In this document: positions 3,842-60,012 of the stretch, one piece after another
Numbering within the stretch: the first letter of the stretch is position 1
Layout of the letters: each line of letters opens with the position of its first letter
From: Antiquaquibacter soli
GTDB lineage: Bacteria > Actinomycetota > Actinomycetes > Actinomycetales > Microbacteriaceae
Assembly: GCF_030580675.1 (NCBI RefSeq)
Contig: NZ_JAUQUB010000001.1
Span: 806,001-870,000 of the forward strand
Direction: 5' to 3'
Length of the DNA: 64,000 nucleotides
Made by a program: the position numbers and the translations under genes
The notes under the pieces: generated by a model
Databases searched by the model: none
Seen by the model: the letters and a program-made list of their open reading frames with translations, nothing else
Told to the model about the DNA's origin: nothing

Positions 3842-4666
3842 ATGCGGAAGCTTCAGGAACAGATCATCGCCGAACTGAACGTGCGCCCGACCGTCGACCC
3901 CGCCGCGGAGATCGCCGCGCGCGTCGACTTCCTCAAGCAGTACCTGACCGCCTCTCGCGCGAACGGCTTCGTGCTCGGCATCTCCGGCGGTCAGGACTCC
4001 AGCCTCGCCGGTCGGCTCTGCCAGCTCGCCGTCGAGGAGCTGCGCGAGGAGGGCACCCTCGCCGAGTTCATCGCCGTGCGGCTGCCCTACCAGGTGCAGC
4101 GGGACGAGGCGGATGCCCAGCTCGCGCTCTCGTTCATCCAGCCCGACCGCTCCGTGACGTTCAACATCCACCGCGCCGTCGACGGCTTCGAGGACGAGTA
4201 CGCCGACGCCACCGGAGCCGACATGCTCGACTTCACCAAGGGCAACGTCAAGGCCCGCGCGCGGATGATCGCCCAGTACGCTCTGGCCGGCCAGGCGGGT
4301 CACCTCGTTGTCGGCACCGATCACGCCGCCGAAGCGGTGACCGGGTTCTTCACGAAGTTCGGGGACGGCGGAGCGGACCTGCTCCCGCTCTCCGGCCTCA
4401 CCAAGAACCAGGGCCGCTCGCTCCTGCAGCACCTCGGCGCTCCCGAGCAGCTCTACCTCAAGGCCCCCACGGCCGACCTCCTCGACGACAACCCGGGCCA
4501 GACGGACGAGGCGAACCTCGGCCTCACCTATTCAGACATCGACGCGTTCCTCGAAGGCAAGGACATCGACCCCGCCGTCGCCGAGCTCATCGAGCAGCGC
4601 TTCCTGGCGACACGGCACAAGCGCGCCGAGCCGGTCACGCCGTTCGACGACTGGTGGCGTGAGTGA
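3842..4666 (+). CDS. nadE: NH3-dependent NAD+ synthetase
   Basis: 274 residues, the normal length of the ammonia-using form. It converts nicotinate adenine dinucleotide, ATP and ammonia to NAD+ in the cytosol. The ATP-pyrophosphatase P-loop GISGGQDSS is at residues 46-54. [23 protein letters not shown] and KAPTADL are also typical of NadE. There is no glutaminase domain, so nitrogen must come as free ammonia. The stop overlaps the start of a nitrilase-family gene by 4 nt (GTGA), so the two are translationally coupled. Nicotinate phosphoribosyltransferase, an earlier step of the same salvage route, is encoded at 26120-27412. Confidence 0.93.
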
Positions 4667-5451
4667 GTCTCGTCGCGGTCGCCCAGTTCGCGCCGGGCGC
4701 TGACCGCGAAGAGAACCTCCGCTCCATCCGCGCGCTCGCGACGCAGGCGGTCGCGCGCGGCGCGACACTGGTGGTGCTGCCCGAGTACTCGTCCTACTTC
4801 ACGCCCGAGATGGGCGCGGACTGGGTGGAGGCCGCCGAGCCCCTCGACGGGCCGTTCGTCAGCGGTCTGGCTTCGGTGGCGCGGGAGCTGGGCATCCATC
4901 TCGTCGCCGGTTTTCTGCAGTCGACGGCCGAGGAGCGCTTCTCCAACACTCTCGTCGCGGTCGACGCCGCGGGGGAGGTCGCGGCGACGTATCGGAAGAT
5001 CCACCTCTACGACGCCTTCGGCCAGCGCGAGTCCGACTGGGTCGTGCCCGGGCCGATCGCGCCGCCGGAGACCTTCGAGTGGGAGGGTCTCACCGTCGGG
5101 CTGCAGACGTGCTACGACGTCAGGTTCCCGGAGGTCACCCGACGTCTCGTCGACGCCGGCGCCGATCTCGTCCTTGTGCCGTCGGAGTGGGTCCGCGGCC
5201 CACTCAAGGAGCACCACTGGCGCACCCTCATCACGGCCCGGGCCCTCGAGAACACGATCTTCGTCGCGGCGGCCGACCATGCACCGCCCATCGGGGTCGG
5301 CAACAGCATGGTCGTCGACCCGATGGGGGTGGAGCTCGTCACGATCGGCGAGCAGACGGCTGTCGCGGTCGCGGAGGTGTCCCGTGAGCGCCTCGAGGCG
5401 GTCCGCGAGGTCAACCCGGCGCTCGCGCTGCGGCGGTTCCGCGTGAGTTGA
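4663..5451 (+). CDS. Nitrilase-superfamily carbon-nitrogen hydrolase
   Basis: 262 residues, cytosolic. The Glu-Lys-Cys triad is complete: Glu41 in LPEYSSYF, Lys112 in YRKIHLYD and Cys150 in [10 protein letters not shown]. The RKIHLYD and CYDVRFPE sequences are closest to the Nit1/deaminated-glutathione amidase branch rather than to true nitrilases. The GTG start at 4663 overlaps the nadE stop. In glutamine-dependent NAD synthetases an amidase of this superfamily is fused to the synthetase. Here the two are separate but coupled, which suggests, without proving, a shared ammonia economy. A general repair amidase is the alternative. Confidence 0.8.
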
Positions 5452-5547: not shown

Positions 5548-6615
5548 ATGGGTGACGCGTACCGTGTCCTGGTCGTGGACGACGACCCGGACGTCGCACT
5601 GTACACGCGGACGGTGCTGGAGAGGCGCGCCGGCGCCGTCGTGAAGGCGGTCGGCAGCCCGCAGGCCGCGCTCGAGTCCCTGGACTCGTTCGACCCGGAC
5701 GTCGTCGTCACCGACATCGAGATGCCCGGGATGACCGGCCTCGAGCTTCTGAGCCGAGTGCGGGTCGCCCGCCCGCTCCTGCCCGTCGTCGTGATGACCG
5801 CCCACGTGTCCGTCGACTACGCCGTCAACGCCCTGCGCGGCCAGGCGGACGAGTTCCTCACCAAGCCCGTCAAGTCCACCGAGCTCGTCGATGTCGTCAC
5901 CCGCCTCGCGGAGGAGGGCCGCAAGGCCCGCGAGTCCGCGGCGGCCCGCGAGGTCGTGCTCGCGGTCGGAGCGCACCCGGATGACGTCGAGATCGGCGTG
6001 GGCGGCATCCTCGCCTCGCACCGCGCCAATGGCGACCAGGTGGTCATCCTGACCCTGTCGCGCGGCGCGGCGGGGGGATCGCCGGATGACCGACAGCACG
6101 AGTCCCTTCGCTCGGCGGAGCTGCTCGGCGCCCGCCTCTTCCTCGAGGACCTCGTCGATACAGAGATCACCAACGGCGGACCGACGGTGCAGGTCATCGA
6201 GCGCGTGGTCGCCGAGGTCGCCCCGTCGATCGTCTACGTGCACTCCAGCCACGACCGGCACCAGGATCATCGCGCCACCCACGAGGCGACGGTCGTCGCC
6301 ACCCGGGGCGTCGGCACCGTCGCGTGCTACCAGAGCCCCTCGTCGACGGTCGACTTCCGTCCGACCCGCTTCGTCTCGATCGAGGCGACCATCGACAAGA
6401 AGCTCGAGCTGCTGAGCTGCTTCCAGTCGCAGACCGACATCCGCAGCTACCTCGAGCCCGACTTCGTCGTCGCTACCGCCCGCTATTGGTCGCGCTACGG
6501 CGGCGGGCGGTTCGTGGAACCGCTCGAGATCCTGCGGGAGACCGCCGACATGTCCACCCAGGCGCGGCGCCGCGAGACGACGAGGCCTTCCGTCGCGGGA
6601 CAGGCGGGCCGATGA
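5548..6615 (+). CDS. Response-regulator receiver fused to PIG-L/LmbE-type deacetylase
   Basis: 355 residues with two domains. Residues 5-120 form a receiver: acidic cluster Asp11-13, phosphoacceptor Asp56 in VVTDIEMPG, Thr84 and Lys106 in TKPV. After a charged linker, residues 135-310 form a PIG-L/LmbE metal-dependent deacetylase with AHPDD at 142-146 and HSSHDRHQDH at 232-241, the usual zinc ligands. This family removes acetyl groups from N-acetylglucosamine-type sugars. There is no DNA-binding domain, so phosphorylation probably switches the enzyme itself. It opens an operon with an ATP-grasp enzyme, a PHP enzyme, a membrane glycosyltransferase, a second receiver and a histidine kinase, which is the likely phosphodonor. 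The substrate is unknown. Confidence 0.88.
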   Translation: MGDAYRVLVVDDDPDVALYTRTVLERRAGAVVKAVGSPQAALESLDSFDPDVVVTDIEMPGMTGLELLSRVRVARPLLPVVVMTAHVSVDYAVNALRGQADEFLTKPVKSTELVDVVTRLAEEGRKARESAAAREVVLAVGAHPDDVEIGVGGILASHRANGDQVVILTLSRGAAGGSPDDRQHESLRSAELLGARLFLEDLVDTEITNGGPTVQVIERVVAEVAPSIVYVHSSHDRHQDHRATHEATVVATRGVGTVACYQSPSSTVDFRPTRFVSIEATIDKKLELLSCFQSQTDIRSYLEPDFVVATARYWSRYGGGRFVEPLEILRETADMSTQARRRETTRPSVAGQAGR

Positions 6616-7598
6616 CCCGCGTGCTGGTGACCGGCGCGGGGGGACCGGCGGGCGTCGCCGTTCTCCGCTCCCTGCTGCGCCGACCGGACGTGACCGTGTT
6701 CGCTGCCGATATGGACGGCTGGGCGAGCGGACTCTACCTGGTTCCCGCGGGGCAGCGCCGACTCGTGGAGCCGGGCCGCTCTCCCTCGTTCGTGGACGGC
6801 GTCGTCGCTCTCGTCGCGGCCGATTCGATCGACGTCGTCTTCTCCACGGTGGATGTCGAGCTCCCGCCGCTCGCCGCGCGTCGCGACGAGCTCGGGGCGG
6901 TCCTCGCGGCGCCGTCGCTCGAGACGCTCGAGGTGACGCTCGACAAGTTCTTGCTCGCCGAGCGCTGCGCCCCTCTGCTCCGCACCCCGGAGACGGCGCT
7001 GCACACCGAAGACGGCATCGCGCGGGACTGGGAGTTCCCGGTCATCGTGAAGCCGCGGCGCGGGGCTGGATCGCGGGGCGTGCGCGTGGTCGCCGACCGT
7101 GCGGGTCTCCAGTCCATCCCCGCCGACGACGCCCTCATCATCCAGGAGTTCCTGCCGGGCGATGAGTACTCGGTGGACGTCTTCGCGGATGCCCGCAGCC
7201 ACGTCATCGCGGCGGTGCCCCGCACTCGTACTCGCGTCGACTCCGGCGTCTCGATCGCCGGGCGCACCGTGCACGACGAGGCGCTGCAGTCCACGGCGGC
7301 CGCGGTGGCCGCCGCCATCGGCCTGAGCGGTGTGGCGAACGTGCAGCTGCGTCGCGATCGGGCGGGCATCCCTGCGCTCCTCGAGGTGAACCCGAGGTTC
7401 CCGGGCGCGCTGCCGCTGACGATCGCGGCCGGTGTCGACATGCCGTCGCTCGCGCTCGACTTGGCGCTCGGTGCCGACCTCCCCGAGTCGCTCGACTTCG
7501 CCGACCTCGCCAACGTGCGCTACCTCGAGGACGTGTTCATCGACCCCGCCGCGGTGCTCGTCTCGGAGTATGCAGCCCACGGCGACGAGGACGGATGA
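6612..7598 (+). CDS. ATP-grasp family ligase
   Basis: 328 residues from the ATG at 6612, which overlaps the previous stop by 4 nt (ATGA). The longer open frame upstream lies inside the deacetylase gene and was rejected. The amino terminus (RVLVTGAGGPAGVAVLRSL) is a Rossmann-like preATP-grasp domain. FPVIVKPRRGAGSRGV at about residues 137-152 is the ATP-binding loop, and IIQEFLPGDEYSVDV and ALLEVNPRFPG supply the adenine- and magnesium-binding residues of carbamoyl-phosphate-synthase-like ATP-grasp enzymes. These enzymes join an acyl phosphate to an amine or similar nucleophile. In this operon it may modify a sugar or add an amino acid, but the substrate cannot be read from the sequence. Confidence 0.85.
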   Translation: MTRVLVTGAGGPAGVAVLRSLLRRPDVTVFAADMDGWASGLYLVPAGQRRLVEPGRSPSFVDGVVALVAADSIDVVFSTVDVELPPLAARRDELGAVLAAPSLETLEVTLDKFLLAERCAPLLRTPETALHTEDGIARDWEFPVIVKPRRGAGSRGVRVVADRAGLQSIPADDALIIQEFLPGDEYSVDVFADARSHVIAAVPRTRTRVDSGVSIAGRTVHDEALQSTAAAVAAAIGLSGVANVQLRRDRAGIPALLEVNPRFPGALPLTIAAGVDMPSLALDLALGADLPESLDFADLANVRYLEDVFIDPAAVLVSEYAAHGDEDG

Positions 7599-8326
7599 CC
7601 GGCCTCGCCGCCTTGCGCGGCGACTTCCATATCCACTCGGTGTTCTCCGACGACGCCGTGTCGACGCTTGCGGAGAACCTCGAGGCCGCCGAGGCGAGGG
7701 GGCTCGCCCGGGTGCGGTTCATCGATCACGTCCGGCAGTCGACCTCCTGGGTGCCCGACTTCGTCGCCGCGGTCGGGTCGTTGGCGGTTCCCTCCTCGAT
7801 CGAGCTGTTCACCGGTGTCGAGGCGAAGCTCGTCGACACGCGAGGGACGATCGACGTTCCTGACGACCTCGTCGGTGTCGGCGCGATCGTCATCGCCGAC
7901 CATCAGTTCCCCGCAGCGGACGGGCCGTGGAGTCCGGGGGAGACGCGCGAGCGCATCGCCGCCGGCCTCAGCCCCGACGCGGTGATCGAGCAGTTCGTGG
8001 ATGCCTCGGTCGCCGCGATGACCGAGTTCGAGCACCGGCATCCGGGCCTGGACGCGCAACTCGCGCACTGGTTCTCGATCCTTCCGAAAGTGGGACTCAG
8101 CGAGGAGCAGTTGACCGACGAGCAGCTCGAGCGGTGGGCACGCGCGGCAGCGGATACCGGCACCGCGATCGAGGTCAATGAGAAGTGGGCTTGCCCCGGA
8201 CCGCGGGCGATCCGCGCTGCGCTCGCCACGGGTGCGCCGATCGTCGCCGCGACCGACAGCCACGACTCGAGCGAGGTGGGCCGGTACGACCGGGTCGCCG
8301 CCATCCTCGAGGAGGCGACGGCGTGA
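7595..8326 (+). CDS. PHP-domain metal-dependent phosphoesterase
   Basis: 243 residues, ATGA overlap with the ATP-grasp gene. The PHP metal ligands are present in order: GDFHIHS at 9-15, IDHV near 44, GVEAK near 71, ADHQF near 103 and ATDSHDSSEVG near 220. The family includes histidinol phosphatase and polymerase-associated phosphoesterases that use a two- or three-metal centre. No polymerase or histidine gene is nearby, so this is not HisK by context. It most likely hydrolyses a phosphate ester formed in the pathway of the neighbouring glycosyltransferase. That is inference. Confidence 0.82.
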   Translation: MTGLAALRGDFHIHSVFSDDAVSTLAENLEAAEARGLARVRFIDHVRQSTSWVPDFVAAVGSLAVPSSIELFTGVEAKLVDTRGTIDVPDDLVGVGAIVIADHQFPAADGPWSPGETRERIAAGLSPDAVIEQFVDASVAAMTEFEHRHPGLDAQLAHWFSILPKVGLSEEQLTDEQLERWARAAADTGTAIEVNEKWACPGPRAIRAALATGAPIVAATDSHDSSEVGRYDRVAAILEEATA

Positions 8327-9819
8327 CCATCGACTGGCTTCAGGTGGGAGTGACGGCCCTCACGACGGTGTTGCTCGCGTTCGTCGCAGTCGGCGCGATC
8401 CCGATCCTCGCGACGCTGTATCAGTTCCTCGCGATCCCGTTCCACTCCGTCATCAACCACTACCGCAAGGCGACGCCGTACTTGCCGCGTGTCGCGGTCG
8501 TGGTGCCCGCGTGGAACGAGGGCGCGGTGATCGGGGCATCCGTCGACCGGCTGATGAGCCTGGAGTACCCGAGCGACCGTTTGCGGGTCTTCGTCGTCGA
8601 TGACGCGAGCACGGATGACACCCCCGAGGTGGTGCGGGGCAAGGAGCAGCAGTATCCCGGCCGCGTCGTGCACCTGCGCCGCGAGAAGGGCGGTGAGGGC
8701 AAGGCGCACACCCTCAACTTCGGCATCGGCCGCGTGCTCGAGGACGACTGGATGCAGGCGCTCCTGATCATGGACGCGGACGTCATCTACCTTCCCGATT
8801 CGCTGCGCCGCATGACCCGCCACCTCGGAGACCCTCAGGTGGGAGCGGTGACCGCCTACATCGCGGAGGGCAGCGCCGACAAGAACTACCTCACCCGGTT
8901 CATCGGCATGGAGTACGTGCTCGCCCAGGTCGCCTCCCGCCGCGCGCAGAACGTTCTCGGTGCCCTGGCGTGCCTCGCGGGGGGCGCACAGCTCCACTCC
9001 CGCGACAACCTCGAGGCGATCGGCGGACGCATCGACACCTCGAGTCTCGCCGAGGACACCATCACCACTTTCGAGACGCAGCTGCGCGGGCGCCGAGTCG
9101 TGTTCGAACCGCACGCCGTGGTGCTCGCGGAGGAGCCGGAGCGCATCGCGTCGCTCTGGAAGCAGCGCCTGCGCTGGGCGCGGGGCAATGTCCAGGTGAC
9201 GTCCCGCTACCGCCGCGTGTGGTTCCGGCCCAGTCGGGTGCACAAGCTCGGCAAGCCCTCGTTCGGTATCTTCTGGTTCTCGATCTTCCTGCTGCCGGTC
9301 GCCATGATCCTCTCGTCGACCGGCCTCATCGGGCTCTTCCTCCTGCAGAGCGAGCTCGCGACCGTCGTCTTCCGCGCGATGTGGATCACGGCCGCCTGCA
9401 CCTACGTGTACACGATCGTGCTGGCGGTGCAGCTCGACGGCCGCACGGGGAGGCGGAGCTGGCGCGAGGCGATCCTGTTCCCGGGGCTGGTGTCGATCAT
9501 CGTCATGGTGACCGCGTTCTTCCCCGGGCTCCTCGAGCGGCGCCTGCCCGAATTGCTGGGCATCCCCGTCACGCCGACCGGCGAGGCGGCCTGGACCTTG
9601 TTCGTCTACGCGTGGATCTCCTTCTCGATGCTCTTCGCCTGGCTCGCGAAGGTCGTCGAGAGCACCGCCGTGGGGCGGTTCCTCAGCCCCTTCCTCATCT
9701 ACGTGGTCGGCTACGGGCCGCTGCTGTGCGCGGTGACGGTCGATTCGTACATCAAGGAATGGCGCCACGAGGCAGCAGTGTGGGACAAGACCGAGAAGAT
9801 CGGACGGGTAGCGGGATGA
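8323..9819 (+). CDS. Membrane processive-type glycosyltransferase family 2
   Basis: 498 residues from the GTG at 8323, which overlaps the PHP stop by GTGA. An amino-terminal membrane segment (about residues 8-32) precedes a cytosolic GT-A domain with VVVPAWNEG, VVDDAST, IMDADV, AEDTITT and KQRLRWARG. These are the substrate-, metal- and acceptor-binding motifs of hyaluronan-, chitin- or poly-GlcNAc-synthase-like enzymes. About five more membrane helices follow (residues 308-480). The Q-x-x-R-W motif favours a processive polymerase. With a PIG-L deacetylase in the same operon, a partly deacetylated amino-sugar polymer is an attractive but untested product. Confidence 0.85.
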   Translation: MTIDWLQVGVTALTTVLLAFVAVGAIPILATLYQFLAIPFHSVINHYRKATPYLPRVAVVVPAWNEGAVIGASVDRLMSLEYPSDRLRVFVVDDASTDDTPEVVRGKEQQYPGRVVHLRREKGGEGKAHTLNFGIGRVLEDDWMQALLIMDADVIYLPDSLRRMTRHLGDPQVGAVTAYIAEGSADKNYLTRFIGMEYVLAQVASRRAQNVLGALACLAGGAQLHSRDNLEAIGGRIDTSSLAEDTITTFETQLRGRRVVFEPHAVVLAEEPERIASLWKQRLRWARGNVQVTSRYRRVWFRPSRVHKLGKPSFGIFWFSIFLLPVAMILSSTGLIGLFLLQSELATVVFRAMWITAACTYVYTIVLAVQLDGRTGRRSWREAILFPGLVSIIVMVTAFFPGLLERRLPELLGIPVTPTGEAAWTLFVYAWISFSMLFAWLAKVVESTAVGRFLSPFLIYVVGYGPLLCAVTVDSYIKEWRHEAAVWDKTEKIGRVAG

Positions 9820-9962
9820 CCGGGCGCGAGCTGGGGGAGCGATTCCTCTCCAAGGAGATCGAGGCCGACCGGCGCTCGGAACGCTGGCTCGTGCTGAAGG
9901 CTGTCATCGCCCTCGCAGTGGTCGGGGTGCTCGTCGTCGTGAGGCAGGTGTTCTTCGGATGA
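9816..9962 (+). CDS. Small single-pass membrane protein in signalling/glycan operon
   Basis: 48 residues. A charged amino half (TGRELGERFLSKEIEADRRSERW) is followed by one hydrophobic helix from about residue 25 to the end (ends RQVFFG). Both ends overlap neighbours by ATGA, so it is translated as part of the operon and is very likely real despite its size. I do not recognise a family. Placed between the glycosyltransferase and the receiver, it could be a small subunit of the synthase, as small membrane partners occur in other polysaccharide synthases. That is inference. Confidence 0.7.
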   Translation: MTGRELGERFLSKEIEADRRSERWLVLKAVIALAVVGVLVVVRQVFFG

Positions 9963-10342
9963 CTGAGACCCCCTACACAGTCGTGATCGCCGACGACGAC
10001 GCGGACATCCGCGACCTCGTCTCGATCTCGGTGCGCAAGGCCGGTCTGCGCGTGCTCGCCGCGGTGGGCGACGGTGCCGCAGCTCTCGACGCCATCCGCA
10101 CGAACCGGCCGGATCTCGCGATCCTCGACATCTCCATGCCCGAGCTGAACGGAATGGATGTCTGCCGCGCTGTCCGCGCGGACGCCGGTATCGGCGACGT
10201 CCGCATCCTCCTGCTCTCCGCCTCGGTGGATGAGGCTGCCGTCAACCTCGGAATCGAGTCGGGCGCCGACTACTTCATGGCCAAACCGTTCAGCCCTCGT
10301 GAGATGGTGGAGTGGCTCGCCGTCGGGAAGGAGGCGCGATGA
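9959..10342 (+). CDS. Stand-alone receiver-domain response regulator
   Basis: 127 residues, a single CheY-like receiver: Asp12-14 acidic pocket, phosphoacceptor Asp57 in ILDISMPE, SAS switch region near 85 and Lys in AKPFSP. There is no output domain. It overlaps both neighbours by 4 nt and lies just before the histidine kinase. It may be the kinase's immediate phospho-partner, a phosphate sink, or a regulator that touches the glycosyltransferase directly. Confidence 0.88.
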   Translation: MTETPYTVVIADDDADIRDLVSISVRKAGLRVLAAVGDGAAALDAIRTNRPDLAILDISMPELNGMDVCRAVRADAGIGDVRILLLSASVDEAAVNLGIESGADYFMAKPFSPREMVEWLAVGKEAR

Positions 10343-12102
10343 CGACCCTGATCACGACCATCCGCACCGTCGTCGGCGATGCCCTCGACCGGCCCTCACC
10401 GCTCGTCAAGCAGTCGGCGACGGTGATCGGCGTCGGCCTCGCGCTCATCCTGCTCGTCGCCGTGCCCGAACTGACTGTGACGCACGGCCCATCGTTCTGG
10501 TCGTCGCTCGTGGTCATCGCGCTCGCGACCGCGCTCGCGGCGCTCATGGGGCGCGACCGGAGCTTCGCGAAGTACGTCATGATCATCCCGGCGATCGATG
10601 TCATCGGTCTCGGCCTGTTCCGCGCGGGCACAGGAGGACCCTCGTCCCTCTTCGCCTCACTCATCATCCTTCCCGTGGTGTGGCTGGCATCGGGTGATGG
10701 GCGGCGCTTCATCGCCTACGCGATCGCCGGCACCTCTCTCTCCCTCGTGATGCCGCAGCTCCTCGGCATCGTGCCCAACGTGTCCGCGATCGACTGGCTC
10801 CGCGGCTTGTTCACCCCGGTCGTCTTCGGACTGGCTGCGGCGATCATCAACGAACTCTCACGGCAGAGCCGAGCGCAGATCCAGTCCATCAAGAGGCTGG
10901 CCGACGACAAGGAGACGATGCTCCAGCGCACCGTCGAGTACGCCGCACAACTGCAGGACAGCGAGGCGAAATTCCGCGCGGCCGACCGGATGTTCCGCGG
11001 GGTGTGGGCGGCGGTCACCGAGCAGTCGGTGATCGGAACCGACCAGGAGGGGCTCATCGACGCGTGGAACCCCGGAGCGACGAAGCTCCTCGGGCCGACC
11101 GCCGACGACGCCGAGGACCGCATGCACATCTTCGACTTCCACCTGCCCGAGGAGCTCGAAGCCTACGCCAAGGAGCTCAACTACCCGCCCGGCGAGACGG
11201 TGCTGAACCCCGGCTTCTCGGCGCTCGTCGAGAACGCGCGACTCGGCAAGGCAGAGAGCCGGGAGTGGACGTATGTCCGCTCCGACGGCACCCACGTGCC
11301 CGTGCAGCTCTCGGTCACTCGTCGCCTCACCGAGACCGGCGAGACCCGTGGCTACCTGTTCGTCGCCTCCGACGTCACCCAGGCCCGAGAGGTGGCGCGC
11401 CTCAAGGACGAGTTCGTGGGGCTCATCTCCCACGAGCTGCGTACGCCGCTGAGCTCCGTGCTCGGCTACCTCGAACTCATGCGCGACGATCGCGAGAACC
11501 CGCTCTCCGAGGAGCAGCTGCAGTACCTCGGCGTCGCCGAGCGCAACGCCCACCGCCTCCTGCGGCTCGTCGGCGACCTGCTCTTCACAGCCCAGGTCGA
11601 GTCGGGCACGTTCCTGCTCACCGACGCCCGCGACATCGAGCTCGGCCCGCTCGTGACGGCGTCGGCGGAGTCCGCGCGCCCCGCGGCCGACGCTGCCGGC
11701 ATCACCCTGGAGGTGGGCATCCCGGATGCTCCCGCCATCGTCACCGGCGACCCCGTGCGATTGGCGCAAGCCGTCGACAACCTCGTGTCGAACGCGATCA
11801 AGTTCACCCAGCGCGGCGGAACGGTATCCATCGCCCTCCACGCCAGTGCGCGCGAGGCCACGATCACGGTGCGCGACACGGGCATGGGAATCGCCGCGGA
11901 GGAGCTCGACCAGCTGTTCTCGCGCTTCTTCCGAGCCTCCACCGCCACGCGCAACGCGGTCCCCGGCGTCGGTCTCGGCCTGACGATCACGAAGGCCATC
12001 GTCACGGCGCACGGCGGCCAGATGGACGTCGAGAGCGACGAGGGCGTCGGTACGTGCTTCACGATGTCCCTGCCGATCGCGACACCCGCGGACGTGGAGT
12101 AG
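10339..12102 (+). CDS. Membrane PAS sensor histidine kinase
   Basis: 587 residues from the ATG at 10339, overlapping the receiver stop by ATGA. About six membrane helices fill residues 25-175, with almost no extracytoplasmic domain, so the signal is probably sensed in or at the membrane. A coiled segment (185-220), a PAS domain (about 225-355, ending in RGYLFVASDVTQ), the phosphoacceptor helix with LISHELRTPLSS (about 370) and an ATPase domain with NLVSNAIKFT, DTGMGIA and GVGLGLTI follow. It is a hybrid-free kinase of the HisKA class. The two receivers in the operon are the natural targets. Confidence 0.9.
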   Translation: MTTLITTIRTVVGDALDRPSPLVKQSATVIGVGLALILLVAVPELTVTHGPSFWSSLVVIALATALAALMGRDRSFAKYVMIIPAIDVIGLGLFRAGTGGPSSLFASLIILPVVWLASGDGRRFIAYAIAGTSLSLVMPQLLGIVPNVSAIDWLRGLFTPVVFGLAAAIINELSRQSRAQIQSIKRLADDKETMLQRTVEYAAQLQDSEAKFRAADRMFRGVWAAVTEQSVIGTDQEGLIDAWNPGATKLLGPTADDAEDRMHIFDFHLPEELEAYAKELNYPPGETVLNPGFSALVENARLGKAESREWTYVRSDGTHVPVQLSVTRRLTETGETRGYLFVASDVTQAREVARLKDEFVGLISHELRTPLSSVLGYLELMRDDRENPLSEEQLQYLGVAERNAHRLLRLVGDLLFTAQVESGTFLLTDARDIELGPLVTASAESARPAADAAGITLEVGIPDAPAIVTGDPVRLAQAVDNLVSNAIKFTQRGGTVSIALHASAREATITVRDTGMGIAAEELDQLFSRFFRASTATRNAVPGVGLGLTITKAIVTAHGGQMDVESDEGVGTCFTMSLPIATPADVE

Positions 12103-12106
12103 TCCG

Positions 12107-13303
12107 TCAGCGCGGGAGGCTCGCGAGCTGCGCGGCGGCGCGATCCAGCACGTCCTCGCGCTTGCAGAACGCGAACCGCACGAGGCTTGCGTAGTGGGCC
12201 CGATTCTCGTCGCGCACGAACGCCGTCACGGGAACGGCGACGACCCCCGCGAGTTCGGGAAGCGAGCGGCAGAAGGCTGCGGCATCCTCGGCGCCGAGAG
12301 GTGCGGCGTCCGCGATGACGAAGTAGCCGGCGTCCGGCGCGCCGACCGCGAATCCGGCGGCCGACAGCCCCGACGACAGGATGTCCCGTTTACGACGAAG
12401 CGCGTCGGCGGCCGACTCGAAGTAGCGGTCGGGCAGGCGGAGCCCGGCGGCGATGGCGGGCTGGAACGCCGCAGCGTTGACGTACGTGAGGTACTGCTTC
12501 ACCGCGAGCACGGGTTCCAGCAGGTGCGGCGGGGCGACGAGCCATCCCACCTTCCATCCCGTCGTGCTGAACGTCTTGCCGCCGCTCGAGATTGTGATGG
12601 TGCGCTCCGCGGCTCCCGGCAGGCTCGCGATGGGGATGTGCTCCACCCCGAACGTGAGGTGCTCGTAGACCTCGTCGGTGACGATGACGGCGTCGTGCTC
12701 GTGGGCGAGTTCCACGATGAGCTCGAGGGCTTCGCGGTCGAGCACGGAACCTGTGGGGTTGTGCGGCGAGTTGACGAGGATGATGCGGGTGCGGTCGGTG
12801 ACCGCGTCGCGCAGCGCGTCGAGGTCGGGTGAGAAGCCGGGGGAGCGCAGCGGCACGGTGATGAGCTCGGCGCGCGCGAGCGCCGTCACCGCGGCGTAGG
12901 CGTCGTAAAAGGGCTCGAACGTCACGACATGATCGCCCTCGTCGGTGAGAGCGAGGACCGTCGCCGCGAGCGCCTCGGTCGCGCCGGCCGTGACGAGCAC
13001 GTCGCGATCCGGGTCGACGCGGATGCCGTAGAAGCGCTCCTGGTGCTCCGCGATCGCGGTGCGCAGCACGGGGAGCCCGCGCCCGGGCGGGTACTGGTTG
13101 AGGCCATCGGATATGGCCTGGCGAGCGGCCTCGAGCACCTCGGCCGGCCCGTCCTCGTCGGGGAAGCCCTGCCCGAGGTTGATCGCGCCCGTCGCCGTCG
13201 CGAGGGCGGACATCTCCGCGAAGATCGTCGGACGAAGCCGACCGTCGTCGCCGAGCAGCATCGCACCGCGCGCCGTGCGCTCCCAGGATCCGCGAACGTC
13301 CAT
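12107..13303 (-). CDS. Class I/II PLP-dependent aminotransferase
   Basis: 398 residues. INLGQGFPDEDGP, NSPHNPTGSVL, TDEVYEHL and SSGGKTFSTTGWKVGW (the last holding the PLP lysine) are the fold-type I landmarks. The pattern is closest to the kynurenine/methionine and N-succinyldiaminopimelate (DapC-like) aminotransferases common in actinobacteria. The amino-acid substrate cannot be fixed by eye. It stands alone, convergent with the histidine kinase 4 nt away. The ATG at 13303 is supported by a TAGGCT box 8 nt upstream. An in-frame ATG lies 14 codons later. Confidence 0.85.
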   Translation of the reverse strand: MDVRGSWERTARGAMLLGDDGRLRPTIFAEMSALATATGAINLGQGFPDEDGPAEVLEAARQAISDGLNQYPPGRGLPVLRTAIAEHQERFYGIRVDPDRDVLVTAGATEALAATVLALTDEGDHVVTFEPFYDAYAAVTALARAELITVPLRSPGFSPDLDALRDAVTDRTRIILVNSPHNPTGSVLDREALELIVELAHEHDAVIVTDEVYEHLTFGVEHIPIASLPGAAERTITISSGGKTFSTTGWKVGWLVAPPHLLEPVLAVKQYLTYVNAAAFQPAIAAGLRLPDRYFESAADALRRKRDILSSGLSAAGFAVGAPDAGYFVIADAAPLGAEDAAAFCRSLPELAGVVAVPVTAFVRDENRAHYASLVRFAFCKREDVLDRAAAQLASLPR

Positions 13304-44541: not shown

Positions 44542-44623
44542 TGCGGAAGGTGGGACTTGAACCCACACGCCCGAAGGCACAGGAACCTAAATCCTGCGTG
44601 TCTGCCGATTTCACCACTCCCGC
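44542..44623 (-). tRNA. tRNA-Leu (anticodon UAG)
   Basis: 82 nt on the minus strand. The acceptor stem pairs GCGGGAG with CTTCCGC (one G-U), then discriminator A. The anticodon loop reads TTTAGGT, giving TAG for CUA codons. A long variable arm (TGCCTTCGGGCGT) marks a class II leucine tRNA, and the T arm GTGGGTTCAAGTCCCAC is standard. The CCA end is not encoded. Bases 44374-44541 between it and the DUF4304 gene hold nothing I recognise. Confidence 0.93.
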
Positions 44624-59615: not shown

Positions 59616-60012
59616 GGGGATGATCGGTTTCGACATTGCCTGCAAAACTGCGAGAAGCGGGTCGAGGACGCACGGTTATCTCGTAAACGATCCGTGCAAA
59701 ACAATAAGTGCCGATTCTAAGAGCACTGTCTCGGCTAAGGCCGACTTCGCCCTCGCGGCGTAAGTTCATCCTTACCCACTAAAAGAGACCGTCAGCCCGG
59801 GAATGCCCTCTACCCGGTGCCTGGCGTCATCCAGAGGGATTGCTGCACGGTTGAGCCTCAGGGCCGCGCGGGACTTTCACTGAGACTGGGCCTGTCGACT
59901 TAGGTGCTTGTGGCAAAGGTCGGGGCCGAGTAGAACGCTTTCACAAGCTACGCCCGTAGAAGGCGCAGGATTACAGCGATGGACGGGGGTTCAATTCCCC
60001 CCATCTCCACCA
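59616..60012 (+). ncRNA. ssrA: Transfer-messenger RNA
   Basis: 397 nt. The tRNA-like ends pair GGGGATG (59616-59622) with CATCTCC (60002-60008), followed by discriminator A and an encoded CCA. GGTTTCGAC and the T arm GGGGGTTCAATTCCCCC are canonical. The tag frame starts at GCC 59710 and ends at TAA 59761-59763, giving ADSKSTVSAKADFALAA, with the degradation-signal ending ALAA. It rescues stalled ribosomes with SmpB. The 17-residue tag is somewhat longer than the 10-residue tag of Escherichia coli. Confidence 0.96.

What the first reader, a model, noticed from the sequence alone, without database searches (positions are those of the whole stretch)
5548..12102. Seven-gene, fully overlapping operon that couples a two-component system to glycan enzymes
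The sequence shows REC-PIG-L fusion, ATP-grasp, PHP, membrane GT2, a 48-residue membrane protein, a lone receiver and a membrane PAS kinase, all six junctions being 4-nt ATGA/GTGA overlaps. None of the two receivers has a DNA-binding domain. A reasonable model is that the kinase controls synthesis and deacetylation of an amino-sugar polymer or glycolipid post-translationally. The ATP-grasp and PHP enzymes would add and remove a substituent. I know of no described system with this set, but I could not search.
Basis: partly seen in the sequence, partly recalled or inferred. Interest (0 to 1): 0.88.

Follow-up and report, generated by a model that had tools for sequence, protein, structure and literature searches.

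The report
Kinase-linked surface sugar synthesis operon
A bacterial gene set in which a membrane sensor kinase appears to switch a sugar-modifying enzyme directly, instead of switching genes, occurs as one unit in many bacteria together with a cellulose-synthase-like enzyme and a tiny membrane partner protein that matches no known family.

Summary
Confirmed: seven genes, six 4-nt overlaps (five ATGA, one GTGA), domains as stated. In 199 genomes of the family, the ATP-grasp, PHP and GT2 genes occur in exactly the same 17 genomes (12 genera), all with the receiver-PIG-L fusion, so this is not chance adjacency. The set recurs in other Actinobacteria and in Proteobacteria. New here: (1) the 48-residue protein is a conserved GT2 partner, overlapping it by 4 nt in 25 of 33 loci and seemingly fused to it in two; (2) PHP is replaced by a histidine phosphatase in six proteobacterial loci, so is probably a phosphatase; (3) receivers with changed phosphorylation residues rarely have a kinase nearby (1 of 10, against 29 of 32 intact); (4) nine of ten proteobacterial loci, and no actinobacterial one, encode a related TPR protein, pointing to export. 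Best reading: a phosphorelay acts directly on a cytosolic de-N-acetylase of a surface-glycan pathway. Product, ligase substrate and direction of control are unknown. P2CS lists an LmbE response-regulator family; my paper searches found no description of the whole system.

The parts
5548..6615 (+). REC-PIG-L: receiver domain (7-117) fused to a PIG-L/LmbE de-N-acetylase domain (from 138)
   Evidence: Pfam PF00072 E=5e-29, PF02585 E=2e-23; H143, D145, D146, H232, D240, H241 in 43 of 43 rows, D56 in 42 of 43; model pLDDT 92.6, fold like BshB and diacetylchitobiose deacetylase plus a receiver
6612..7598 (+). ATP-grasp ligase, PRK12767 / ATPgrasp_Ter type
   Evidence: PF15632 E=3e-31, PF02655 E=1e-17; nearest solved sequence 2pn1; nine checked residues in 28 of 28 rows
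7595..8326 (+). PHP-domain enzyme, probably a phosphatase
   Evidence: PF02811 E=6e-7; H14, D19, H45, E76, H103, H158, D221, H223 in 26 of 26 rows, H12 in 25 (the other row starts later); replaced by His_Phos_1 in six proteobacterial loci (Pfam for L059 and L051)
8323..9819 (+). Membrane GT2 with cellulose-synthase-like fold (DD, DAD, ED, QxxRW)
9816..9962 (+). 48-residue single-pass membrane protein, proposed GT2 synthase subunit
   Evidence: small hydrophobic-segment ORF overlapping GT2 by 4 nt in 25 of 33 loci, 0 of 236 control ORFs; E22 in 21 of 21 rows; apparent fusion to GT2 in two Legionella loci; no Pfam family at the default cut-off
9959..10342 (+). Lone receiver (CheY-like)
   Evidence: PF00072 E=7e-24 over nearly the whole length, nothing else
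10339..12102 (+). Membrane PAS histidine kinase (four hydrophobic segments, PAS, HisKA, HATPase_c)
   Evidence: Pfam, hydropathy
4663..5451 (+). Left boundary, not part of the system: nitrilase-like hydrolase next to a NadE-like gene (3842-4666); both names from the translations, by recall
   Evidence: same flank in relatives; directly next to the aminotransferase gene at two sites without the operon
12107..13303 (-). Right boundary, not part of the system: aminotransferase (name by recall)
   Evidence: same flank in relatives

Best explanation
A phosphorelay-controlled surface-glycan pathway. Inferred steps: the membrane PAS kinase senses an envelope or cytosolic signal and passes phosphate to the receiver half of REC-PIG-L, and to the lone receiver, which may be a phosphate sink or a second output. 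Phosphorylation changes the activity of the fused de-N-acetylase, which frees an amine on a GlcNAc-containing precursor in the cytosol. The ATP-grasp enzyme uses a carboxylate and ATP, probably to acylate or aminoacylate that amine. The PHP enzyme removes a phosphate from an intermediate. The membrane GT2, with the 48-residue protein as its subunit, builds and moves the product through the membrane; in Gram-negatives a TPR protein, probably in the outer membrane, completes export. Shown here by computation: domain identities, intact active-site residues, strict co-occurrence, the GT2 partner, phosphatase replacement, and the link between kinase presence and receiver intactness. Not shown: phosphotransfer, direction of control, substrates, product. 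My odds for the parts (judgement): kinase acts on REC-PIG-L 0.8; GT2 subunit 0.85; phosphatase 0.7; exported saccharide 0.7 (raised from 0.65 after one search found the TPR partner in nine and not six of ten proteobacterial loci); amine acylation 0.45.
For: Identical 17-of-199 presence pattern of ATP-grasp, PHP and GT2, all 17 with REC-PIG-L, including three genomes where GT2 lies elsewhere. Cross-phylum synteny. Kinase within 7 kb in 25 of 32 fusion loci against 3 of 16 PIG-L-only loci. Intact receiver pocket goes with a kinase in the fetched region: 28 of 32 intact against 1 of 10 changed (Fisher p=1.4e-5 without correction for kinship), 29 of 32 after the L049 kinase found. 48-residue partner. 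Phosphatase swap. GT2 fold. Related TPR proteins in 9 of 10 proteobacterial loci and the myxococcal L058, in none of the other 70 of 80 loci with L054 included. PIG-L neighbours in fold include BshB and diacetylchitobiose deacetylase.
Confidence: 0.55

Rival explanations
1. Small glycoconjugate or glycolipid, not a polymer: the set has the four reaction types of mycothiol synthesis (glycosyl transfer, dephosphorylation, PIG-L de-N-acetylation, ATP-dependent ligation; recalled), and GT2 transfers a single sugar to a lipid.
For: PIG-L fold nearest to BshB-type enzymes (TIGR04001 83.7 bits, below its cut-off of 182.5); PcManGT is the top fold match; PHP or a histidine phosphatase beside ATP-grasp and a HAD hydrolase near it in a distant cluster; no exporter recognised inside the actinobacterial cassette.
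Against: GT2 matches hyaluronan and cellulose synthases over nearly its full length, keeps QxxRW, and 9 of 10 proteobacterial loci encode a related TPR protein whose repeats resemble those of PgaA and BcsC among others.
Confidence: 0.28
2. A pga/ica-like poly-N-acetylglucosamine system with an unusual regulator, in which PIG-L deacetylates the polymer itself.
For: GT2 best NCBIfam hit is PgaC/IcaA (125.5 bits); PgaA is among the hits of the TPR proteins; PIG-L.
Against: Score far below the PgaC/IcaA cut-off (422.3); REC-PIG-L has no membrane segment by hydropathy and sits with a cytosolic receiver, whereas PgaB/IcaB act outside (recalled); ATP-grasp and phosphatase have no place in that pathway (recalled).
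Confidence: 0.08
3. The receiver of REC-PIG-L is only a localisation or dimerisation domain and the kinase serves other targets; the operon is one unit but without phosphocontrol of the deacetylase.
For: Some cassettes persist with changed receivers and no kinase seen; a lone receiver is present as another target.
Against: 42 of 43 rows keep D56; change of the pocket goes with kinase absence, as expected if phosphorylation matters where a kinase exists.
Confidence: 0.12

Closest known systems
LmbE response-regulator family as listed in P2CS
   Same: The name implies a receiver joined to an LmbE/PIG-L domain; named among 35 response-regulator families taken from P2CS in a passage of PMC9487997
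   Different: I saw no functional description and did not see P2CS itself; the partner enzymes, kinase and 48-residue protein are not mentioned in the passages read
pga/ica poly-N-acetylglucosamine systems
   Same: Membrane GT2, a deacetylase, a small membrane partner, and a TPR protein in Gram-negatives (pga/ica parts recalled)
   Different: Deacetylase of another kind and place, ATP-grasp and phosphatase added, GT2 below the family cut-off, a phosphorelay in the operon
Mycothiol and bacillithiol synthesis
   Same: Reaction types: glycosyl transfer, phosphatase, PIG-L de-N-acetylation, ATP-dependent ligation (recalled; PIG-L part from passages of PMC4101496)
   Different: Membrane GT2 and an ATP-grasp ligase instead of the mycothiol enzymes
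Escherichia coli yaiO-yaiX-yaiP-yaiS cluster
   Same: GT2 (24% over 232 columns), PIG-L (32% over 158), outer-membrane protein gene
   Different: No receiver, ATP-grasp or kinase annotated there; YaiO shows no similarity to the L059 TPR protein
Cellulose and hyaluronan synthases (fold of GT2)
   Same: Nearly whole-length fold and QxxRW, DxD-type motifs
   Different: 13-18% identity, no PilZ domain in Pfam, own small partner protein

Membership tests
Response regulator with LmbE/PIG-L output | Receiver with acidic pair, phospho-Asp, Thr/Ser and Lys | tested here: met
   D12, D13, D56, T84, K106 in the window protein; D56 in 42 of 43 rows
Response regulator with LmbE/PIG-L output | LmbE metal site HxDD plus a distal His | tested here: met
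   H143, D145, D146, H241 in 43 of 43 rows; motif from passages of PMC4101496
Response regulator with LmbE/PIG-L output | Activity depends on phosphorylation | not testable with these tools
   only indirect: kinase and receiver intactness go together
Transcriptional two-component system | Regulator with DNA-binding output | tested here: not met
   no such domain in either receiver protein in Pfam
pga/ica system | GT2 reaches the PgaC/IcaA model cut-off | tested here: not met
   TIGR03937 125.5 bits, cut-off 422.3
pga/ica system | Extracytoplasmic deacetylase | tested here: not met
   PIG-L fused to a receiver, no hydrophobic segment
pga/ica system | PgaD/IcaD-type small subunit | tested here: inconclusive
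   48-residue partner present but matches no such family
Cellulose-synthase-like GT2 fold | GT-A domain with DxD, ED and QxxRW plus membrane helices | tested here: met
Cellulose-synthase-like GT2 fold | Processive polymer synthesis | not testable with these tools
   fold shared with a mannosyltransferase too
Mycothiol pathway | MshA-type GT and MshC-type ligase in the set | tested here: not met
   the operon's transferase and ligase give GT2 and ATP-grasp hits; mycothiol genes elsewhere in the genome were not searched
PHP phosphatase | Conserved PHP metal ligands | tested here: met
   eight of nine residues in 26 of 26 rows, H12 in 25; which residues bind metal is recalled
PHP phosphatase | Phosphomonoesterase activity | not testable with these tools
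   indirect: replaced by His_Phos_1
E. coli yai cluster | YaiO-type outer-membrane protein | tested here: not met
   L059 TPR protein shows no similarity to YaiO (E=0.40); other TPR proteins not compared; none in the window operon

The most novel reading that the evidence does not exclude
A widespread, undescribed class of surface-glycan machine in which a sensor kinase directly phosphorylates the de-N-acetylase that commits precursor to an N-(amino)acylated hexosamine glycan, with a new family of single-pass micro-subunits of cellulose-synthase-like GT2 enzymes.
Probability: 0.35. Interest if true: 0.88.

Novelty: new variant of a known kind. Interest (0 to 1): 0.72.

Why it matters
Two-component systems are mostly read as gene switches; here the output is an enzyme of glycan chemistry in one operon with its pathway, so kinase-to-product control could be tested with one deletion series. 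The conserved micro-protein gives a handle on how cellulose-synthase-like enzymes are assembled, and the phosphatase swap gives a concrete pathway to reconstitute. The set is present in named isolates of soil-type Actinobacteria such as Leifsonia, Microbacterium and Cellulomonas.

Tried and rejected
Rejected: chance adjacency (identical 17-of-199 pattern). Rejected: classic transcriptional system (no DNA-binding output). Rejected: membership in pga/ica (cut-off and topology). Considered: YaiO homology of the TPR proteins, not supported for the one compared. Considered: curdlan synthesis in Cellulomonas; passages of PMC3544764 name GT2 enzymes 35-39% identical to curdlan synthase by locus tag only, and I could not match them to the GT2 here; its 'potential EPS cluster' has ABC transporters and differs from this set. 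PMC10819609: passages only, nothing on this set. PMC6048251: passages, a P. aeruginosa PIG-L protein in another context. Literature searches that returned no paper. Searches (1 paper; 3; 2; 2; 67, 10 listed; 51, 10 listed) returned other papers; of these I opened only PMC9487997, PMC4101496, PMC6048251, PMC3544764 and PMC10819609, as passages; the one hit (PMC12419801) was seen as a listing only. Promoter and terminator scan found nothing. The phylum sample was too sparse for co-occurrence: 2 of 296 genomes for GT2 and 4 of 296 for REC-PIG-L at the cut-offs, two of these four matching the PIG-L half only. The second look at structures was run for GT2 only.

Limits of controls. The 236 control ORFs come from a mechanical ORF set, so some are not true genes; within a wider span (11 nt before to 60 nt after the stop) a small hydrophobic ORF follows 7 of 236 of them, against 27 of 33 GT2. 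In one search the best shuffled sequence scored E=0.052 against 0.0012 and 0.0063 for the two Legionella GT2 proteins. One search searched L068-L100 (the PIG-L-only group) for receiver matches within 1.2 kb of PIG-L: L087 has a separate receiver gene just downstream and L100 a weak match (E=0.011) about 1 kb upstream on the other strand; L098 carries hydrophobic helices before PIG-L. Kinase positions were typed in.

Rows dropped: L013 was left out of A1 because its reading contains a stop codon. A2 holds 42 of 47 fusion loci plus the window: L028, L031, L032 and L034 (close relatives of kept rows) and L064 (partial, its contig begins inside the gene, so its receiver is not seen) were left out. 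A3 holds 28 of 33, A4 27 of 39, A5 25 of 31 loci plus the window. A6 holds 20 of the 29 small ORFs plus the window; one search used a loose hydrophobic filter, so counts are quoted.
Full report
What is there. The seven ORFs at 5548-12102 are real, at the stated coordinates and with the stated domains. The six junctions are 4-nt overlaps, five ATGA and one GTGA. REC-PIG-L, the PHP enzyme and the lone receiver have no hydrophobic segment by hydropathy; GT2 has six, the 48-residue protein one, the kinase four, and the ATP-grasp enzyme one weak one. Active-site residues are intact and conserved: PIG-L 43 of 43 rows, GT2 29 of 29, ATP-grasp 28 of 28, PHP 26 of 26 for eight of nine residues. The flanks are NadE-like and nitrilase-like genes on the left and an aminotransferase on the right (names by recall).

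One system. In an even draw of 199 genomes of the family, full-length REC-PIG-L is in 31, with four more genomes matching only the PIG-L half. GT2 is in 17, ATP-grasp in 17 and PHP in 17, at cut-offs of 1e-100, 1e-60 and 1e-30, and these are the same 17 genomes, from 12 of 85 genera; all 17 have REC-PIG-L. In three of them, all of one genus (G081, G150, G202), GT2 lies far away or on another contig, yet is present. Related genomes are not independent samples, but presence also varies within genera g1 and g38.

Spread. A scan of named genomes gave 80 loci (the best 80 of 550), 47 of which I treat as receiver-PIG-L fusions, one of them cut by its contig start. ATP-grasp, PHP and GT2 follow the fusion in loci of Microbacteriaceae, Cellulomonas, Blastococcus, Solirubrobacterales, Ilumatobacteraceae and Frankiaceae; ATP-grasp or GT2 without PHP accompany it in Legionella, Rhodospirillales, Marinicella and Burkholderiales. 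Of 47 fusion loci 39 have the ATP-grasp, 33 GT2 and 31 PHP at the cut-offs used; some contigs end inside the region.

Locus history in the genus. REC-PIG-L is in 12 of 27 genomes. The fullest form, G016, reads: nitrilase, REC-PIG-L type b, REC-PIG-L type a, ATP-grasp, PHP, GT2, 48-residue protein, receiver b, receiver, kinase, aminotransferase. The window lacks type b and receiver b. Seven of the twelve have type b with the same receiver and kinase but no ATP-grasp, PHP or GT2 in the fetched region; six of these seven lie between the same nitrilase and aminotransferase genes, and G008's short contig shows neither. In G003 and G009 the operon lies away from the nitrilase gene, and in G004 and G009 the nitrilase and aminotransferase genes are neighbours with nothing between. 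So kinase, receiver and a REC-PIG-L form a core, and the enzyme cassette comes and goes, often at one site.

The 48-residue protein. A small ORF (35-100 codons) with a hydrophobic stretch overlaps the end of GT2 by exactly 4 nt in 25 of 33 loci; the same test gave 3 of 31 after PHP, 0 of 39 after ATP-grasp, 0 of 47 after REC-PIG-L and 0 of 236 after other ORFs. Two of the three PHP cases are the same small protein in Leifsonia loci without GT2 at that place; the third is the beginning of GT2 in another frame. The family has Glu22 in 21 of 21 rows, a pattern like DxRxERxL before the helix, and VR after it in 13 of 21. No Pfam family matches the window protein at the default cut-off; with a cut-off of 0.1, seven families match one or two members each, the best being DUF5345 at 7e-5, which matches two members. 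Six GT2 loci lack the separate ORF; in two of these, from Legionella, GT2 carries an extra C-terminal piece with the same pattern. A profile of the family ranks those two first among 29 GT2 proteins and 580 shuffles, with modest E-values of 0.0012 and 0.0063, the best shuffle reaching 0.052. This points to a subunit of the synthase.

PHP as phosphatase. Six proteobacterial loci (L051, L056, L057, L059, L062, L063) have a histidine phosphatase next to the ATP-grasp gene and no PHP; no other of the 80 loci, and so none of the 31 PHP loci, matches that phosphatase at E 1e-4. Three proteobacterial loci (L049, L052, L054, the last at a contig end) show neither. In a more distant cluster without receiver fusion (PIG-L, GT2, ATP-grasp), 7 of the 8 loci L068-L075 have a UDP-GlcNAc 2-epimerase gene and then a HAD hydrolase gene after ATP-grasp; L100 has the epimerase where its contig ends, and L072 ends before any ATP-grasp match. 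Whether that cluster is the same pathway is not established. The swap argues for a dephosphorylation step, and the epimerase for N-acetylhexosamine chemistry.

Kinase and receiver. With full flanks of 7 kb, a kinase lies near the fusion in 25 of 32 loci, against 3 of 16 for PIG-L without receiver; at 5 kb it is 15 of 36 against 1 of 18, at 3 kb 10 of 39 against 0 of 23. Among 42 relatives, 32 have an intact receiver pocket and 28 of these have a kinase in the fetched region, against 1 of 10 with a changed pocket (Fisher p 1.4e-5, kinship not corrected); a hybrid kinase in L049 found later makes 29 of 32, and two of the remaining three intact loci (L050, L054) are near contig ends. Two changed receivers are actinobacterial (L065, L066), so this is not only a proteobacterial trait. 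D56 itself is lost in only 1 of 43.

REC-PIG-L. The model (pLDDT 92.6) matches TT1542, BshB and N,N'-diacetylchitobiose deacetylases in the PIG-L half and receivers in the other. The receiver fusion and lack of membrane segments place the deacetylase in the cytosol, so the substrate is probably a precursor, not secreted polymer (inference).

Mechanism and limits. The most likely reading is direct phosphocontrol of a cytosolic de-N-acetylation step in a surface-glycan pathway, with ATP-dependent ligation and dephosphorylation, and a GT2 plus micro-subunit as the membrane synthase. Phosphotransfer, direction of control, substrates and product are not shown. Genomes with only type b REC-PIG-L show that the fusion can occur without this cassette.

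Known and new. PMC9487997 (passages) lists LmbE among response-regulator families taken from P2CS, so the fusion is a catalogued type. My searches in the held open-access papers found no paper that joins ATP-grasp with PIG-L and none, in the rows listed, that describes this set; subscription journals are mostly not held. I rate it a new variant of a known kind.

Noticed in passing
L043:9021-17389: A locus with four kinase matches in a row behind a type-b REC-PIG-L, between the usual nitrilase and aminotransferase flanks.
   Followed up: no
L068-L075, L100: A second cluster without receiver fusion: PIG-L, GT2, ATP-grasp, UDP-GlcNAc 2-epimerase, HAD hydrolase in Geodermatophilus, Actinoplanes and others.
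   Followed up: partly
L052:4693-6309 and L057:3648-5228: GT2 proteins with a C-terminal piece that resembles the 48-residue protein.
   Followed up: yes
L030:12689-12913: The beginning of GT2 in this Leucobacter locus reads in a different frame from the rest; sequencing error or decay, left as it is.
   Followed up: no
G051:C1:2492495 (L117), G081, G150, G202 (L114-L116): GT2 relatives away from the cassette and without the 48-residue partner within 150 nt.
   Followed up: partly
L091, L096, L098: A further arrangement PIG-L, ATP-grasp, GT2; in the Actinotignum locus (L098) PIG-L follows hydrophobic helices and a kinase and a receiver gene lie nearby.
   Followed up: partly
L087:9995-11281: An archaeal locus with a PIG-L gene and a separate receiver gene just downstream, not fused.
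   Followed up: no
window 59616-60012 and 44542-44623: tmRNA (+) and a tRNA (-), the only Rfam matches in the window at the gathering threshold.
   Followed up: no
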